A program made the translations under genes and the position numbers. The notes beneath the pieces are model-generated. The model did not search any database. It had not been told where the DNA came from and saw only the letters and a program-made list of their open reading frames with translations. Positions 6,231 to 14,121 of a stretch of DNA of 64,000 nucleotides are shown in pieces; within the stretch, counting starts at the first letter, position 1; each line of letters starts with the position of its first letter. The DNA is taken from NCBI RefSeq assembly GCF_003194625.1, contig NZ_QHKX01000003.1, forward strand, positions 434,001-498,000. The letters run 5' to 3'. This DNA comes from Nocardioides solisilvae (GTDB lineage Bacteria > Actinomycetota > Actinomycetes > Propionibacteriales > Nocardioidaceae).

Positions 6231-7838
6231 TCAGTGGAAGAAGTGCCGGGTGCCGGTGAAGTACGTCGTCACGCCGGCCGCCGCGAGCGCCTCCACGACC
6301 TCGGCGTCGCGCACCGAGCCGCCGGGGGCGACGATCGCGCGCACCCCGGCGTCGACGAGGATCTGCGGGCCGTCGGCGAAGGGGAAGAAGGCGTCGGAGG
6401 CGGCCACCGACCCCGCGGCCCGCTCCCCCGCCCGCTCCACCGCGAGCCGGCAGGAGTCGACCCGGTTGACCTGGCCCATGCCGACGCCCACCGAGGCGCG
6501 GTCGGCGGCCAACAGGATGGCGTTGGACTTCACCGACCGGCAGGCCCGCCAGGCGAAGGCGAGGTCGGCGAGCACCTCGTCGGTCGCGGGCTCGCCGGCG
6601 ACGAGCCGCCACGCCGACGGGTCGTCCCCGCCGCCGTCGACGACGGCGTCCACAGCGTCGCGCCGCTGGAGCAGCAGGCCGCCGGAGACGGGCCGCATCT
6701 CGACCGCCGCACCGCCGCCGGGGGCGCACTCGAGCAGCCGGATGTTCTTCTTGGCGGTCAGCACCTCGACGGCGCCCTCCTCGTAGCCGGGCGCGACGAC
6801 GACCTCGGTGAAGACGTCGGCGACCTGGCGGGCCATCTCGACCGAGACGGGCACGTTGGTGGCGATCACGCCGCCGAAGGCCGACACGGGGTCACAGGCG
6901 TGCGCCTTGCGGTGGGCCTCGGCGACGTCGGCACCCACGGCGAGGCCGCACGGGTTGGCGTGCTTGATGATCGCGACCGCGGGCTCGGCGAAGTCGTACG
7001 CCGCCCGGCGCGCGGCGTCGGCGTCGACGTAGTTGTTGTAGGACATCTCCTTGCCGTGGAGCTGGACGGCCTGCGCCAGCCCGGGCTCCGGCACGTGGCC
7101 GGCGGTGTAGAGGGCGGCCGCCTGGTGCGGGTTCTCGCCGTAGCGCAGCACGGCCTGCTTCTCCCAGGTGGCGCCCATCCACGCCGGGAAGCCGCTGCCC
7201 TCGCCGGTGTCGACCAGCACGTTGCCCATCCACGAGGCGACGGCCACGTCGTACGACGCCGTGTGGACGAACGCCTCCGCCGCCAGGGACTGCCGCTCGG
7301 CCAGGGTGAACCCCTCGCCGGCCGCGGCGGCCAGGACGGCGGCGTACCGGGCGGGCGACGTGACGACCGCGACGGACGGGTGGTTCTTCGCCGCGGCGCG
7401 GACCATCGAGGGGCCGCCGATGTCGATCTGCTCGACGCACTCGTCGGGCGCCGCGCCGGAGGCGACCGTCTGGGTGAACGGGTAGAGGTTGCACACGACC
7501 AGGTCGAAGGGCTCGACCTCGAGCTCCTCGAGCTGGGCGACGTGGCTCTCCAACCGGCGGTCGGCGAGGATCCCGGCGTGCACCCGCGGGTGCAGGGTCT
7601 TCACCCGGCCGTCGAGGCACTCGGGGAAGCCGGTGAGCTCCTCCACCCGGGTCACCGGGAGGCCGAGGCCCTCGATCAGGGCGGCCGAGCCGCCGGTCGA
7701 GACGAGGGCGACGCCGGCCTCGTGCAGGCCGCGGACGAGCTCCTCGAGCCCGGTCTTGTCGTAGACCGACACCAGGGCCCGGCGGATCCGGATCCGGTCG
7801 GGCTGGTGGGCGGGAGCGGAGTGGGCGGGCTCGGACAC
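6231..7838 (-). CDS. purH: Bifunctional AICAR transformylase / IMP cyclohydrolase
   Basis: Catalyses the last two steps of IMP synthesis. 535 residues, full length. The N-terminal MGS-like cyclohydrolase domain contains [14 protein letters not shown] and [13 protein letters not shown]; the transformylase half carries the [13 protein letters not shown] motif with its catalytic Lys-His. The GTG start at 7838 is preceded by GAGGAG at a spacing of about seven bases. The 129-base gap before it holds a ZTP riboswitch, so this gene and probably folD respond to ZTP, the marker of 10-formyl-folate shortage. Confidence 0.97.
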
Positions 7839-8610: not shown

Positions 8611-9933
8611 CTAGTGACCGTCGGGGGTGGGGCCGTCGCCGTCCACCGGCGCGGCCGGCTCGGCCGGCTCGTCGACCGGCTCGTCGGCCGGCTCGGAGGT
8701 GTGCCGCTGCCACCAGGTGACGGCCAGGCCGCCGAGCAGGCCGCCGATCCCCATGGCGGTGACCAGGTGGACGAGCACGTCGCCGGTCAGCGGCCCCACG
8801 AAGCGCATCCGGCCGGGCCCGGCCGCGCCCCCGGCGAGCGCGGTCAGGGCGGTGAGCACGAGCCCCGCACCCACTCCCCCGACGCAGCCCCGCAGCGCCC
8901 CGTGGTCCCAGCGCAGGGTCGGGCGGCGGCGCTGGGTGCGGACGGCGGCGACGGCCGCGACGGTGCCGGGCACCAGCATGACCAGCCACGGCCACGCCAG
9001 GGGCGCGCCCTCGTCGGGCAGGGCGGCCAGCAGGGGCAGCACCGGGAGCGGGCCGAGCACCACCGAGCCCGGCGAGACCAGCGTCGCGCCGCCGACCGCG
9101 AAGCCCGGGCCCGCCAGGAAGGCGCCGGCGCAGAGCACGGCGTTGGGCAGGAGGGCGAGCGAGACCAGGACGAGCAGCACCGTCTCGCCCGGCGAGGTGT
9201 GCAGCCGCTCGACGAGGTTGGCCGCCTCGTCGAGGTCGAGCAGCAGGGCGCCGAGCAGCAGCACGGTCGCGAGCAGCAGGTGGAGCAGCACGGCGTGCCG
9301 GGCCGTGCTCGCGGCGTGCCGCGCCCAGGGCGGCAGCCCGGTCGCCCACACCGACGCGCGGCCCGAGCCGGTCGCGACGGCGGGCCCGGCGACGAGCAGC
9401 GTGAGCGCCAGGACGCGCAGCAGGACCGACCCGCCGGCGGAGGGGAACGTCTCTCCGAGGGCCGAGCCGAGCGCCAGCGCCACCGCGGCGTACCCCGCCC
9501 CGAAGCCGGCGACGCCGACGGGGACCGTCCAGTCACGAGCACCGTCGGCCAGGTCGTGGGCGTCGGGCCCGTGGGCCCAGAGCCGCTCCCCCAGCCCGCG
9601 GGCCACCCGCCAGGTGCACCAGGCCGCGAGCAGGGTGAGCCCGAGGGGCACGAGCGTGACGGGGGCGCCGCGCACGACGATCCCCGACCCGTGGCCCACG
9701 AGCCACCCACCGGCCCCGGCGGCGAGCGCCGAGCGGGGCTCCCCGTGCACCCCGAGGTCGCTGAGGAACCAGCCGAGCAATGCCAGCAGGACGCAGACCA
9801 GCAGCGACAGCCCGGCCGCCAGGACGCCGGCGGACGAGGCCAGCAGCAGCACCGGGCGACGCCTCGGCCCGGCCGTGGGCTCGTCGGGGGTCGCCCGTCC
9901 CGCGGACGCGGTCGAGGGCAGCAGCGAGGTCAT
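8611..9933 (-). CDS. DUF6350 multi-pass membrane protein
   Basis: 440 residues with about ten hydrophobic segments and a short acidic C-terminal tail (SEPADEPVDEPAEPAAPVDG). A membrane protein of this kind upstream of purN is standard in actinobacteria (DUF6350). The frame stays open far upstream on this strand, but the ATG at 9933 is the right start: it gives MTSLLPSTAS, a basic stretch and then the first membrane helix, and everything before it is antisense to the next gene. Function unknown; it may share a transcript with purN. Confidence 0.8.
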   Translation of the reverse strand: MTSLLPSTASAGRATPDEPTAGPRRRPVLLLASSAGVLAAGLSLLVCVLLALLGWFLSDLGVHGEPRSALAAGAGGWLVGHGSGIVVRGAPVTLVPLGLTLLAAWCTWRVARGLGERLWAHGPDAHDLADGARDWTVPVGVAGFGAGYAAVALALGSALGETFPSAGGSVLLRVLALTLLVAGPAVATGSGRASVWATGLPPWARHAASTARHAVLLHLLLATVLLLGALLLDLDEAANLVERLHTSPGETVLLVLVSLALLPNAVLCAGAFLAGPGFAVGGATLVSPGSVVLGPLPVLPLLAALPDEGAPLAWPWLVMLVPGTVAAVAAVRTQRRRPTLRWDHGALRGCVGGVGAGLVLTALTALAGGAAGPGRMRFVGPLTGDVLVHLVTAMGIGGLLGGLAVTWWQRHTSEPADEPVDEPAEPAAPVDGDGPTPDGH

Positions 9934-10059
9934 GACCTCGTCATCATCACCCCGTCGCGGAGCCTCCCGGCGCAGGCACGCCGACCCCGTCGGGGCGCCG
10001 CCCGGGAATCCCGGACTCCGCTGCGGGCGCGAGGGGCGCTCCCGTACCGTGGACGTGCC

Positions 10060-11958
10060 ATGACGCACGCGGACGACTTCGACGACCTCTACAAGGCCGT
10101 GCGCGACCCCCTCCTGGCCGAGGCGTACGCCCTCACGGGCGACCTGCACGTCTCCCGGACGGCGGTCCGCGACGCCCTCGCCGTCGCCTGGCACCACTGG
10201 CACAAGGTGCGGCACCGCCGGGACCAGGTCGGGTGGCTGCGCCCGCTCGTCTGGAGCCGCGCCCGGCACCGCCACACGGCCCGCCCGTGGCACAAGGAGA
10301 AGGACGTGCCGGCGGGCGTGGCGGCGACGCTCGACGCTCTCGCCGGGCTGTCGGGCAACCAGCGCAAGGCGCTCGTCCTCACCCACCTGCCGGCCCTGCC
10401 CACGCCGGGCATCGCCCGCGAGGTGGGCGTCCCCGAGACCACCGCCCGCGAGCTGGTCCGTGCCGGCACGGCGGCGCTCGCCGCCGCCCGCGAGGTCCCC
10501 GAGGCCGAGGTGGGGGCGCTCTTCGAGGAGCTCCGGGCCACCACCGCCGGGGGTCGCTGGCCGCGCAGCACGATCCTGCGCCGCGCCGGCACCGCCCGGC
10601 GGCGTACCCACACGCTGCTCGGCGTCGTCGGCACTGCCGCGGCGGTCGTGCTCAGCGGCATGGTCGTGGCCCAGGGCGAGACCGTCGACGCGAGCCTCGG
10701 CGAGCAGGGCTTCGAGCGCCGGGCCACCCAGGTCGAGCCCGAGGAGGTCGTGCCCACCCTCAGCGAGGACTCGCTGCTGCAGGCCACGCAGGCCCGTCGC
10801 CTGGGCCGCGGCCTGGAGTGGGCCGAGGCCGACACCCACGACAACGCCGGCGGCGACGGCCTGGTGCTGCCCTGCCAGGCGACCCGGTACGCCGACCCGG
10901 AGGGCCTCGGCACGCTCGTCCGCTTCTTCGAGGGCAGCACCCGGCCCGAGACCGCCCCGTCCGGCGGCCGCGGCGACGGCGACGGCGGCAAGCAGCGGCG
11001 CGCCCGCCGAGCGGCCCCGCCCGAGGTGCGCGCGGACGCGATCCAGCTCACCGAGCTCTCCGCCTCCCCCGAGGCCGCGGCGACGGCGTTCCGCACGGTC
11101 CAGGACTGGGTCGCCGACTGCACCGCCCCCCGGCTGCAGCTGCTGGCCGCGCACGAGCTGCGCGGGGTGGGCGACGAGGCGCGCCTCTACACGCTCCGCA
11201 GCTGGCAGGGACCCACCCGGACCGTCCACCTCGGCGTCGCCCGTTCCGGCCAGCACGTGACCGTCACGTCCAGCCGGGTCCCCGGTCTGCGTCCCGCGCC
11301 CAAGCCGGCCGGACAGCTCCTCGCGGCGGCGGTCAACGCGTCCTGCGGCACCCCCGGCGCCGGCTCCTGCGCCACGCCTCCGCGCCCCCGTCCCGTCGCC
11401 GTCCCGGTCGCCGAGGCCGCCCCCGGCATGCTGACCGAGCTCGACCTGCCGCCGGTGGCCGGCGCGATCGGCCCCTGGGTCGGCACCGCCCCCAAGCCGG
11501 CGCGCACCAACACCGCGCAGACCCGCTGCGACCGGACCACCTTCCAGGCCAAGGGGCTGCGGGACAGCCGGACCCGCACGTTCCTCTTCCTCCAGGGCAA
11601 GCGGGCCGACGAGTTCGGGCTCACCCAGTCCGCCGCCGTCGCGCGGACGCCGAAGGTCGGCCGTGGGTTCGTCGAGCAGGTCCGCTCCCGGCTGGCCCAG
11701 TGCGCGCAGGAGGGCTTCGGCACCGAGGTCTCGCGGCTCTTCCACCGGACCGAGAAGAAGGTCGACCTCTCGGTCTGGCGCCTCGAGCTGGCGCTGCCCG
11801 ACGAGAGCTCCCTGGAGTTCCTCATGGCGATCATGCGCCACGGCGACAAGGTCGCGCAGGCGACCTTCACCCCGACCCAGGGACGCACGATGGGGCGCGA
11901 CGACTTCGTGTGGCTCTCCCGCCGCGCGGTGGAGCGCCTGCCCCGCTTCGCCCCCTGA
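10060..11958 (+). CDS. Sigma-70-like (SigE-type) protein fused to a membrane anchor and outer sensor-like domain
   Basis: 632 residues. Residues 1-150 look like an ECF sigma factor: a region-2-like part (DFDDLYKAVRDPLLAEAYAL ... AVAWHHWHKVRHR) and a region-4 helix-turn-helix (LSGNQRKALVLTHLP ... GIAREVGVPETTARELVR). One strong transmembrane helix follows at about 185-205, preceded by basic residues, so the sigma-like part faces the cytoplasm. The remaining 425 residues would lie outside and hold paired cysteines and two related blocks with a Trp-Cys pattern (VQDWVADCTAP; RLAQCAQEGFG), reminiscent of PknH-like sensor domains. There is no separate anti-sigma gene next to it. The start ATG 10060 is divergent from DUF6350 with 126 bases between. 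Whether the head still binds RNA polymerase or only DNA is unknown. Confidence 0.75.
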   Translation: MTHADDFDDLYKAVRDPLLAEAYALTGDLHVSRTAVRDALAVAWHHWHKVRHRRDQVGWLRPLVWSRARHRHTARPWHKEKDVPAGVAATLDALAGLSGNQRKALVLTHLPALPTPGIAREVGVPETTARELVRAGTAALAAAREVPEAEVGALFEELRATTAGGRWPRSTILRRAGTARRRTHTLLGVVGTAAAVVLSGMVVAQGETVDASLGEQGFERRATQVEPEEVVPTLSEDSLLQATQARRLGRGLEWAEADTHDNAGGDGLVLPCQATRYADPEGLGTLVRFFEGSTRPETAPSGGRGDGDGGKQRRARRAAPPEVRADAIQLTELSASPEAAATAFRTVQDWVADCTAPRLQLLAAHELRGVGDEARLYTLRSWQGPTRTVHLGVARSGQHVTVTSSRVPGLRPAPKPAGQLLAAAVNASCGTPGAGSCATPPRPRPVAVPVAEAAPGMLTELDLPPVAGAIGPWVGTAPKPARTNTAQTRCDRTTFQAKGLRDSRTRTFLFLQGKRADEFGLTQSAAVARTPKVGRGFVEQVRSRLAQCAQEGFGTEVSRLFHRTEKKVDLSVWRLELALPDESSLEFLMAIMRHGDKVAQATFTPTQGRTMGRDDFVWLSRRAVERLPRFAP

Positions 11959-12054: not shown

Positions 12055-12936
12055 TCAGAGCTTCTCGAGGATCTCCCGCATCAGGGCGGCGGTCTCGGAC
12101 GGCGTCTTGCCGACCTTGACACCGGCAGCCTCGAGGGCCTCCTTCTTCGCCTGGGCGGTGCCCGAGGAGCCCGAGACGATGGCGCCGGCGTGGCCCATGG
12201 TCTTGCCCTCGGGAGCCGTGAAGCCCGCCACGTAGCCGACGACCGGCTTGGTGACGTGCTCCTTGATGTAGGCCGCGGCCCGCTCCTCGGCGTCGCCGCC
12301 GATCTCGCCGATCATCACGATCGCCTTGGTCTCCGGGTCGTTCTCGAAGGCCTCGAGGGCGTCGATGTGCGTGGTGCCGATGATCGGGTCGCCGCCGATA
12401 CCGATGGCGGTGGTGAAGCCGTAGTCCTTCAGCTCGTACATCATCTGGTAGGTCAGCGTGCCGGACTTGGAGACCAGGCCGACCGGGCCCTTGCCCGCGA
12501 TGGTGTGCGGCGTGATGCCGGCCAGCGACTCCTCGGGCGTGATGATGCCCGGGCAGTTGGGACCGATCATCCGGGTGGACTTGCCGTCGAGGTAGGCGAA
12601 GACCTCCGCGGTGTCCTGGACCGGGACGCCCTCGGTGATGACGACGAGCAGGCCGATGCCGGCGTCGATCGCCTCGATGCAGGCGTCCTTGGTGAAGGCC
12701 GGCGGGACGAAGACGACAGAGACGTCGGCCCCGGTCTCCTTCATGGCCTCGGCGACGCTGCCGAAGACCGGCAGCTCCTTGCCGCCGAGTTCGACCGACG
12801 TACCGGCCTTGCGGGCGTTGACGCCGCCCACGATGTTGGACCCCGCCTCGACCATGAGGGTGGTGTGCTTGGAGCCCATCCCACCCGTCATGCCCTGGAC
12901 GATGATCTTCGAGTCCTTGTTCAGGTAGATGCTCAT
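12055..12936 (-). CDS. sucD: Succinyl-CoA synthetase alpha subunit
   Basis: Forms the succinyl-CoA ligase with SucC, making ATP or GTP in the citrate cycle. 293 residues, full length. The CoA-binding start [28 protein letters not shown] and the phosphohistidine segment [15 protein letters not shown] are present. It follows sucC after 18 bases on the same strand, so they are one operon. Both end at the shared hairpin. Confidence 0.97.
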
Positions 12937-12954
12937 GCTTGTCGCTGCTCCGTC

Positions 12955-14121
12955 TCAGGCGTTCGCCAGCTCGGCGGCCTTGTCGGCCGCTCCGTCCATG
13001 GTGTCCACGAGGGTGACCAGCGGGTGGTTCGCCTCGGTGAGGATGCGGCGGCCCTCCTCGACGTTGTTGCCGTCGAGGCGGACGACCAGCGGCTTGGTGG
13101 CCTCGTCGCCGAGGATGCCGAGCGCGCCCACGATGCCGTTGGCGACCTCGTCGCAGGCGGTGATGCCGCCGAAGACGTTGACGAAGACGCTCTTGACCTG
13201 CGGGTCGTGGAGGATGACGTCGAGGCCGTCCGCCATGACCTGCGCGTTGGCGCCGCCACCGATGTCGAGGAAGTTGGCGGGGGTCACCCCACCGTGCGCC
13301 TCGCCGGCGTAGGCGACGACGTCCAGGGTCGACATGACCAGGCCCGCGCCGTTGCCGATGATGCCGACCTGGCCGTCGAGCTTGACGTAGTTGAGGCCCT
13401 TGTCCTTGGCCTTGGCCTCCAGCGGGTCCTCCTCGTCACGGATGACGAAGTCGGCGTGGTGGGCCTGGCGGAACTCGGCGTTCTCGTCGAGCGAGACCTT
13501 GCCGTCGAGCGCCTCGAGCTTGTCGCCCTCGAGGCGGGCCAGCGGGTTCACCTCGACGAGGGTCGCGTCCTCCTCGGTGTAGACCTTCCACAGCGCCTGG
13601 ACCATCTCGATGGCCTGGTCGCGCAGCTCGGCGGGGAACTTCGCCTCGTCGACGATCGCGGCGGCCTTCTCGGGCGTCACGCCCTCGAGGGCGTCGACGT
13701 TGATCTTGCGGACGGCCTCGGGGTTGGTCTTGGCGACCTCCTCGATCTCCACACCACCCTCGACCGAGGCGATGCACAGGTGCGAGCGGTTCGCGCGGTC
13801 CAGCAGGAAGGAGAAGTAGTACTCCTCCACCGGAGGCGTCGCCGGGGTCACGAGGACCCGGTTGACGCGCAGCCCCTTGATCTCCATGCCGAGGATGTTG
13901 GAGGCGTGCTCGAAGGCCTCGTCCGCGGTCTTCGCGAGCTTCACGCCGCCAGCCTTGCCACGGCCGCCGGCCTTGACCTGGGCCTTGACGACGGTGACGC
14001 CGCCCATCTCCTCCGCAGCGGCGCGCGCCTCCTCGGCGGTCTCCACGACCTTGCCGAGGGTCGTCGTGACGCCGTGCTTGGCGAAGAGCTCCTTCGCCTG
14101 GTACTCCATCAGGTCTGACAT
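12955..14121 (-). CDS. sucC: Succinyl-CoA synthetase beta subunit
   Basis: ATP-grasp subunit of succinyl-CoA ligase. 388 residues, full length. Seen: [14 protein letters not shown] at the N-terminus, [20 protein letters not shown] for the nucleotide, and [16 protein letters not shown] near the C-terminus. The ATG at 14121 (MSDLMEYQ) is preceded by an AGGA and an A-rich run; the internal ATG four codons on is an alternative. It is first in the sucCD operon and divergent from the photolyase gene. Confidence 0.97.

What the first reader, a model, noticed from the sequence alone, without database searches (positions are those of the whole stretch)
10060..11958. Sigma-factor-like head fused to a membrane helix and an outer sensor-like domain
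One polypeptide appears to join ECF region-2 and region-4-like sequences, a transmembrane helix and a 425-residue outer part with two related Cys/Trp blocks. That would be a one-protein transmembrane transcription switch with no separate anti-sigma factor, or a membrane-held DNA binder.
Basis: partly seen in the sequence, partly recalled or inferred. Interest (0 to 1): 0.65.

Follow-up and report, generated by a model that had tools for sequence, protein, structure and literature searches.

The report
Membrane sensor with decayed sigma-factor head
A two-gene switch found in many actinobacteria (a sigma factor plus its membrane sensor) has become one protein here, and its sigma part, although strongly preserved, has lost the residues a sigma factor normally uses to grip promoters, so it has probably become a signalling part of a membrane receptor.

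Summary
In detail: 10060-11958 (+) encodes one 632-residue protein with an ECF-type sigma2/sigma4-like head (1-143), a basic juxtamembrane segment, one transmembrane helix (186-204, head inside) and a two-part outer domain with six conserved cysteines. The second outer half belongs to the PknH_C family.

Relatives lie at the same place (purH-purN-DUF6350 | X | sucD-sucC) in most same-family genomes. In other families X is two overlapping genes: an ordinary SigE-type ECF sigma factor and a separate membrane sensor whose N-terminus and outer domain match the rest of the window protein. The window gene is an in-place fusion of that pair. In two other families of the order the sensor persists with no sigma head.

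The head is not an ordinary sigma. The region-2.2 Gln (19/19 standalone relatives) is kept in 1/30 heads. The region-4.2 T-[VI]-K motif (19/19) is lost in 30/30, and that helix changed net charge from +2.7 to -1.2. Yet sigma2 is the most constrained part of the protein (dN/dS 0.11).

Best reading: a transmembrane receptor with a sigma-derived signalling domain (sigma mimic or tether) rather than a releasable promoter-reading sigma. Membrane-fused ECFs are already known (ECF48/52/53, IutY). This is a new variant. Partner and signal are unknown.

The parts
10060..11958 (+). Fused gene: sigma-like head + juxtamembrane segment + TM helix + two-part outer domain, 632 aa
   Evidence: full-length relatives in about 136/150 same-family genomes; synteny
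10045..10050 (+). TACCGT, sigma70-type -10-like element 9-10 nt before the ATG; near-leaderless transcript inferred
   Evidence: TANNNT at this distance in 34/44 relatives against 2% of shuffled upstreams
10060..10299 (+). sigma2-like part, residues 1-80
   Evidence: TIGR02983 match 3-143; dN/dS 0.11
10168..10170 (+). Arg37 where the standalone SigE-type relatives have an invariant Gln (region 2.2)
   Evidence: Q in 19/19 standalone, 1/30 heads
10321..10488 (+). sigma4-like part, residues 88-143
   Evidence: Sigma70_r4_2; AlphaFold confidence mostly 70-90 over about 81-160
10435..10479 (+). Decayed recognition helix of region 4.2 (residues 126-140, ETTARELVRAGTAAL)
   Evidence: T-[VI]-K motif 19/19 standalone, 0/30 heads; mean net charge -1.2 against +2.7
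10501..10605 (+). Basic juxtamembrane segment, residues 148-182, homologous to the N-terminus of the standalone membrane partner
   Evidence: hhalign of 149-205 against partner N-termini, E 9.8e-10
10615..10671 (+). Transmembrane helix, residues 186-204
   Evidence: hydropathy 2.26, corresponding place in all members scanned
10753..11334 (+). Outer domain, first half (232-425; W254, C272, C354); carries a Gly/Arg-rich insert (about 301-325) that most relatives lack
11371..11955 (+). Outer domain, second half (438-632; C490, C548), PknH_C-like
   Evidence: PF14032 in 18/30 members
8611..9936 (-). Upstream divergent neighbour, DUF6350 membrane protein
   Evidence: PF19877 5e-63
12055..12936 (-). 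Downstream convergent neighbour, sucD

Best explanation
The gene is an in-place fusion of an ancestral two-gene module: a SigE-type ECF sigma factor overlapping the gene of its single-pass membrane sensor/anti-sigma partner. Shown: same locus, same gene order, homology of all three segments, and the unfused version in other families. The fused protein is a receptor: the cysteine-rich, PknH_C-type outer domain senses something at or outside the membrane, the TM helix carries the signal in, and the sigma-derived head is the cytosolic signalling part. Because the head has lost the region-2.2 Gln and the -35 recognition motif while its sigma2 part stays the most constrained part of the protein, it most likely no longer reads promoters but still docks on a sigma-type partner surface (the RNA polymerase beta' clamp, or an anti-sigma factor), acting as a membrane-held sigma mimic whose availability the outer domain controls. 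Shown: anatomy, origin, loss of the sigma signatures, constraint. Inferred: loss of promoter reading, the docking partner, the direction of control.
For: Same locus purH-purN-DUF6350|X|sucD-sucC throughout. In families f4 (L167, L168) and f23 (L163-L165, L182) X is a standalone canonical ECF plus a separate membrane gene overlapping it by about 8-14 nt. Outer domains of the fused and unfused proteins are homologous along their length (hhalign probability 99.7, E 1e-26), and the juxtamembrane segments too (E 1e-9). Heads form one clade (98/99) within a subfamily shared with the locus standalones and set apart (100/100) from the genome's own SigE paralogues. Loss of the Gln, T-[VI]-K and basic recognition helix. 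dN/dS: sigma2 0.11, sigma4 0.33, juxtamembrane+TM 0.14, outer halves 0.47/0.36.
Against: No binding or expression data. Gln to Arg need not abolish core binding, and sigma2 regions 2.3-2.4 remain recognisable and basic. sigma4 could read another -35 sequence or none. If the partner were the anti-sigma of the second ECF module found beside the gene in some relatives, the window genome would have no partner, because that module is absent there. Full-length structure prediction is of low confidence except around residues 81-160.
Confidence: 0.55

Rival explanations
1. A working one-component membrane sigma factor: the outer signal triggers regulated intramembrane proteolysis, the freed head binds RNA polymerase and starts transcription at promoters with an altered or absent -35 element, as proposed for ECF52 and shown for IutY.
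For: Same overall layout as fused ECFs (PMC8999054; SCO4117, PMC5826349); sigma2 strongly conserved; best Foldseek matches are ECF sigma factors.
Against: Invariant Gln and -35 motif lost in essentially all heads; head scores less than half of the curated SigE cut-off; the gene's own upstream carries a sigma70-type -10 element and no ECF-like promoter was recognised there; no zinc-finger anti-sigma domain.
Confidence: 0.25
2. The head is a leftover: the conserved job is that of the outer domain and TM helix, and the head serves only as a cytosolic anchor.
For: In families f3 and f2 of the same order the sensor persists at the same locus with no sigma head, only a short basic or a long disordered N-terminus.
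Against: In the window's own family the head is the most conserved part of the protein (identity; dN/dS).
Confidence: 0.13
3. Partner switch with the neighbouring second module: the head is a decoy that binds the anti-sigma/membrane partner of an intact SigE-type ECF encoded just downstream.
For: In many same-family genomes an intact ECF plus membrane partner follows the fused gene; in f23/g86 a half-decayed ECF with its sensor is likewise followed by an intact ECF and its own membrane partner.
Against: The intact ECF is present in only 40 of 150 same-family genomes and absent from the window's, while the fused gene is in about 136.
Confidence: 0.07

Closest known systems
ECF48, ECF52 (SCO4117) and ECF53 membrane-fused ECF sigma factors of Actinobacteria
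   Same: ECF domain N-terminal, TM region, long outer extension, predicted head inside, no separate anti-sigma gene
   Different: They carry a zinc-finger anti-sigma domain and recognisable sigma domains (ECF52: carbohydrate-binding outer module; PMC5826349, PMC8999054). Here there is no zinc finger, the outer domain is PknH_C-like, and the sigma signatures are lost.
IutY (ECF243) of Pseudomonas putida
   Same: Sigma factor fused to its former membrane anti-sigma factor
   Different: IutY remains a working sigma released by Prc and RseP and belongs to a siderophore cell-surface signalling system (PMC8999054); no such components were seen here
SigE-family ECF sigma factor plus separate membrane partner (TIGR02983 type) at the same locus in other families
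   Same: Orthologous locus; homologous head, juxtamembrane segment, TM helix and outer domain
   Different: Two overlapping genes; the sigma keeps Gln and GT[VI]K and scores 140-154 bits
PhyR sigma-like domain (sigma mimicry, NepR partner switch)
   Same: Sigma-derived domain used for protein binding instead of promoter reading; weak PhyR-family match in 23/30 heads
   Different: PhyR is soluble with a receiver domain; here a membrane sensor, no receiver domain, no NepR identified
PknH extracellular sensor domain of mycobacteria (PF14032, PDB 4ESQ)
   Same: Second outer half matches it in 18/30 relatives; conserved cysteines
   Different: There it sits on a Ser/Thr kinase or a lipoprotein; here on a sigma-like head, with an extra first half

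Membership tests
SigE-family ECF sigma factor (TIGR02983) | Sequence homology over sigma2 and sigma4 | tested here: met
   30/30 members match, window 3.9e-18 over 3-143
SigE-family ECF sigma factor (TIGR02983) | Score above the curated cut-off of 141.55 bits | tested here: not met
   63-66 bits for the window; locus standalones 140-154
SigE-family ECF sigma factor (TIGR02983) | Region 2.2 Gln | tested here: not met
   Arg37 in the window; 1/30 heads against 19/19 standalone
SigE-family ECF sigma factor (TIGR02983) | Region 4.2 T-[VI]-K motif with a basic recognition helix | tested here: not met
   Lys 0/30 heads against 19/19; charge -1.2 against +2.7
SigE-family ECF sigma factor (TIGR02983) | Binds core RNA polymerase and starts transcription | not testable with these tools
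   needs biochemistry
Membrane-fused ECF groups ECF48/52/53 | ECF domain followed in one chain by one or two TM helices and a long extension | tested here: met
Membrane-fused ECF groups ECF48/52/53 | Zinc-finger anti-sigma domain between head and TM | tested here: not met
   no Pfam zinc finger; residues 144-185 contain no Cys
Membrane-fused ECF groups ECF48/52/53 | Assignment by ECF group profile | not tested
   ECF group models are not in the libraries at hand
PknH_C (PF14032) | Pfam profile match of the outer domain | tested here: inconclusive
   18/30 relatives match (best 5.4e-8); the window sequence itself gives no match; first half never
PhyR-type sigma mimic | Receiver domain fused to the sigma-like domain | tested here: not met
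   no such Pfam match
PhyR-type sigma mimic | Binds an anti-sigma factor | not testable with these tools
   -

The most novel reading that the evidence does not exclude
A sigma factor has been turned, by fusion with its own membrane partner and decay of its promoter-reading surfaces, into the cytosolic signalling domain of a transmembrane receptor: a membrane-bound sigma mimic that acts on RNA polymerase or on anti-sigma factors without reading promoters.
Probability: 0.4. Interest if true: 0.72.

Novelty: new variant of a known kind. Interest (0 to 1): 0.5.

Why it matters
One genomic address shows a two-gene sigma/sensor module in several states: intact (f4, f23, f31), first copy half-decayed next to an intact second (f23/g86), fused and decayed (the window's family; a short head+TM form in f22/g68), and with the sigma lost altogether (f2, f3). 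That gives a natural series for asking what a sigma domain can do once it stops reading promoters, and whether annotations that call such proteins 'sigma factor' are wrong. The gene is near-universal in the window's family, so a knockout in one tractable species would inform many.

Tried and rejected
AlphaFold of residues 1-182 as a single sequence: pLDDT 41, not used. AlphaFold of full length with one relative: only about 81-160 confident; the Foldseek result is therefore only supporting, and its weak Mog1/PsbP/DcrB-type hits, possibly from the first outer half, were not followed. Relatives from the genome search were not handed to structure prediction because its rule does not list them. PDB profile searches with the outer halves gave nothing credible. 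'ECF2 decoy' as the general function: rejected as the main reading because ECF2 is absent from the window genome and most relatives. Chance ORF or frame artefact: rejected by conservation and dN/dS. Some of the 142/150 matches (E weaker than 1e-10) are probably other ECFs: of six such genomes, the three re-tested with the outer-domain profile had no outer domain, so 136 is used. Rfam over the locus: nothing. A paper search for the region-2.2 Gln (Q406) found no paper on that residue, so its role in core binding rests on general knowledge plus its 19/19 invariance here.

Full report
Check of the observation. The open frame at 10060-11958 (+) codes for 632 residues. It lies between a divergent DUF6350 membrane-protein gene (8611-9936, -) and sucD/sucC (12055-14121, -), with purN and purH beyond DUF6350. 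The TM helix (186-204 in the window) is at the corresponding place in every relative scanned and follows a strongly basic segment, which puts the head inside by the positive-inside rule.

The head. Residues 3-143 match the SigE-family ECF model TIGR02983 (2.3e-17 full length, 3.9e-18 alone), as do all 30 relatives tested (best 8.7e-20); the window scores 63-66 bits against a curated cut-off of 141.55. Pfam sees sigma region 4 in 23/30 but region 2 in only 1/30. A profile of the head finds ECF sigma factors in the PDB (SigF fragment 4e-5, CnrH, SigL, SigK). The AlphaFold model from two sequences is poor overall (mean pLDDT 41) but confident at about 81-160; Foldseek ranks SigW first (E 9.8e-4), with SigE, AlgU, SigH and BldN among the following matches.

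The outer part. Across 17 members of three families the outer domain keeps six invariant cysteines (window C272, C354, C429, C437, C490, C548) and invariant Trp and Arg residues. The second half matches PknH_C in 18 of 30 relatives (best 5.4e-8), although not in the window sequence itself; the first half matches nothing. The two halves resemble each other only weakly (hhalign E 1e-3, probability 22%). PknH's sensor has two disulfides and a cleft proposed to bind a small molecule (PMC3601408), which makes a ligand sensor a reasonable guess.

Where it comes from. The locus purH-purN-DUF6350|X|sucD-sucC is conserved widely in the class, so X can be compared between families. In families f4 (L167, L168) and f23 (L163, L164, L165, L182) X is two genes: a standalone ECF with all SigE signatures (140-154 bits) and a membrane protein whose start codon overlaps the ECF end by about 8-14 nt. 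The membrane protein's N-terminus is homologous to residues 149-205 of the fused protein (hhalign E 1e-9) and its outer domain to the fused outer domain (probability 99.7, E 1e-26); some members match PknH_C weakly (4e-5 to 0.03). A family f31 genome (L184) has the same two-gene form. In f23/g86 (L158, L159, L161, L162) the first ECF is half-decayed (keeps Gln, has lost GTVK) and an intact second ECF follows. In the window's family the pair is fused. In f3 (L109-L111, L115) and f2 (L112-L114, L137, L148, L149, L151, L152) the membrane sensor persists with no sigma head; f2 has long acidic or Pro-rich heads. In f22/g68 (L180, L181) a sigma-like head plus TM helix with almost no outer part occupies the same place; the other five genomes of that genus searched encode a relative too, whose neighbourhood was not read. 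A maximum-likelihood tree puts all heads in one clade (98/99), in a subfamily with the locus standalones and the second-module ECFs and apart (100/100, branch 1.5) from the six SigE paralogues of the window's genome. Whether fusion preceded or followed duplication is not resolved.

Is the head a working sigma? In an alignment with 19 standalone SigE-type sigmas, the region-2.2 Gln is invariant in the standalones and present in 1 of 30 heads (Arg in 21). The T-[VI]-K of region 4.2 is invariant in the standalones and its Lys is absent from all heads. The net charge of the recognition helix falls from +2.7 to -1.2. These are the surfaces that bind the beta' clamp and the -35 element in sigma factors of known structure (general knowledge). 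The head is nevertheless not junk: in 55 close pairs dN/dS is 0.11 for sigma2, 0.33 for sigma4, 0.14 for the juxtamembrane and TM stretch, and 0.36-0.47 for the outer halves. So a sigma2-type surface is preserved while promoter reading was probably given up.

Expression. TACCGT, a sigma70-type -10, ends 9 nt before the ATG in the window, and TANNNT stands at that distance in 34 of 44 relatives against 2% in shuffles; this suggests housekeeping, near-leaderless transcription rather than sigma autoregulation.

Mechanism. I commit to a receptor whose sigma-derived head docks on a sigma-binding surface (RNA polymerase clamp or an anti-sigma factor) under control of the outer domain. The working one-component sigma released by proteolysis is the main rival; vestigial head and partner switch with the neighbouring ECF module are minor ones. 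The last is weakened because the second module is found in only 40 of 150 genomes and not in this one.

Comparison with the known. Single-chain membrane ECFs are known: ECF48, ECF52, ECF53, some ECF36, and IutY (PMC8999054), ECF52 with a zinc finger and a carbohydrate-binding domain (PMC5826349). The fusion idea is therefore not new. Different here are the absence of a zinc finger, the PknH_C-type sensor, the unfused orthologue at the same address, and the lost sigma signatures. PhyR is the known precedent for a sigma-derived domain used for binding, but it is soluble and has a receiver domain. Verdict: new variant of a known kind.

Noticed in passing
L084, L085, L087, L088, L091, L092, L104-L108, L117 (between fused gene and sucD): An intact SigE-type ECF overlapping its own membrane partner gene stands after the fused gene in many relatives (a tandem second module); found in 40/150 same-family genomes, absent in the window's genome.
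   Followed up: yes
L180, L181 (f22/g68, same locus); other g68 genomes G318, G335, G350, G365, G376: A shorter sigma-like head fused to a TM helix with almost no outer domain sits at the same locus; relatives found in all seven g68 genomes searched.
   Followed up: partly
L112, L113, L114, L137 (f2, same locus): The sensor carries a long acidic, disordered-looking N-terminus with a recurring D-E-[TDS]-x-T-T-L-L-P-[RA]-T motif instead of a sigma head; it looks like a kinase or FHA-type docking motif (guess).
   Followed up: no
L158, L159, L161, L162 (f23/g86): A half-decayed ECF (Gln kept, GTVK lost) with its sensor stands next to an intact second ECF: a natural intermediate of the decay.
   Followed up: partly
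window 9977-9983 and upstream regions of relatives: CACGCCG is present in 36/44 intergenic regions between DUF6350 and the fused gene, apparently at a fixed distance (about 45 bp, by eye) from the DUF6350 start; possibly part of the DUF6350 promoter.
   Followed up: no
L079-L083, downstream of the fused gene: A lipoprotein-like gene with an IPDDFPL-like motif stands where other relatives have the second ECF module.
   Followed up: no
L031, about 6440-6500: The reading frame of the relative in this MAG breaks near residue 497 (the remainder is in another frame), probably an assembly or sequencing frameshift.
   Followed up: no
window about 10960-11034: Gly/Arg-rich insert of about 25 residues in the first outer half, absent from most relatives.
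   Followed up: no
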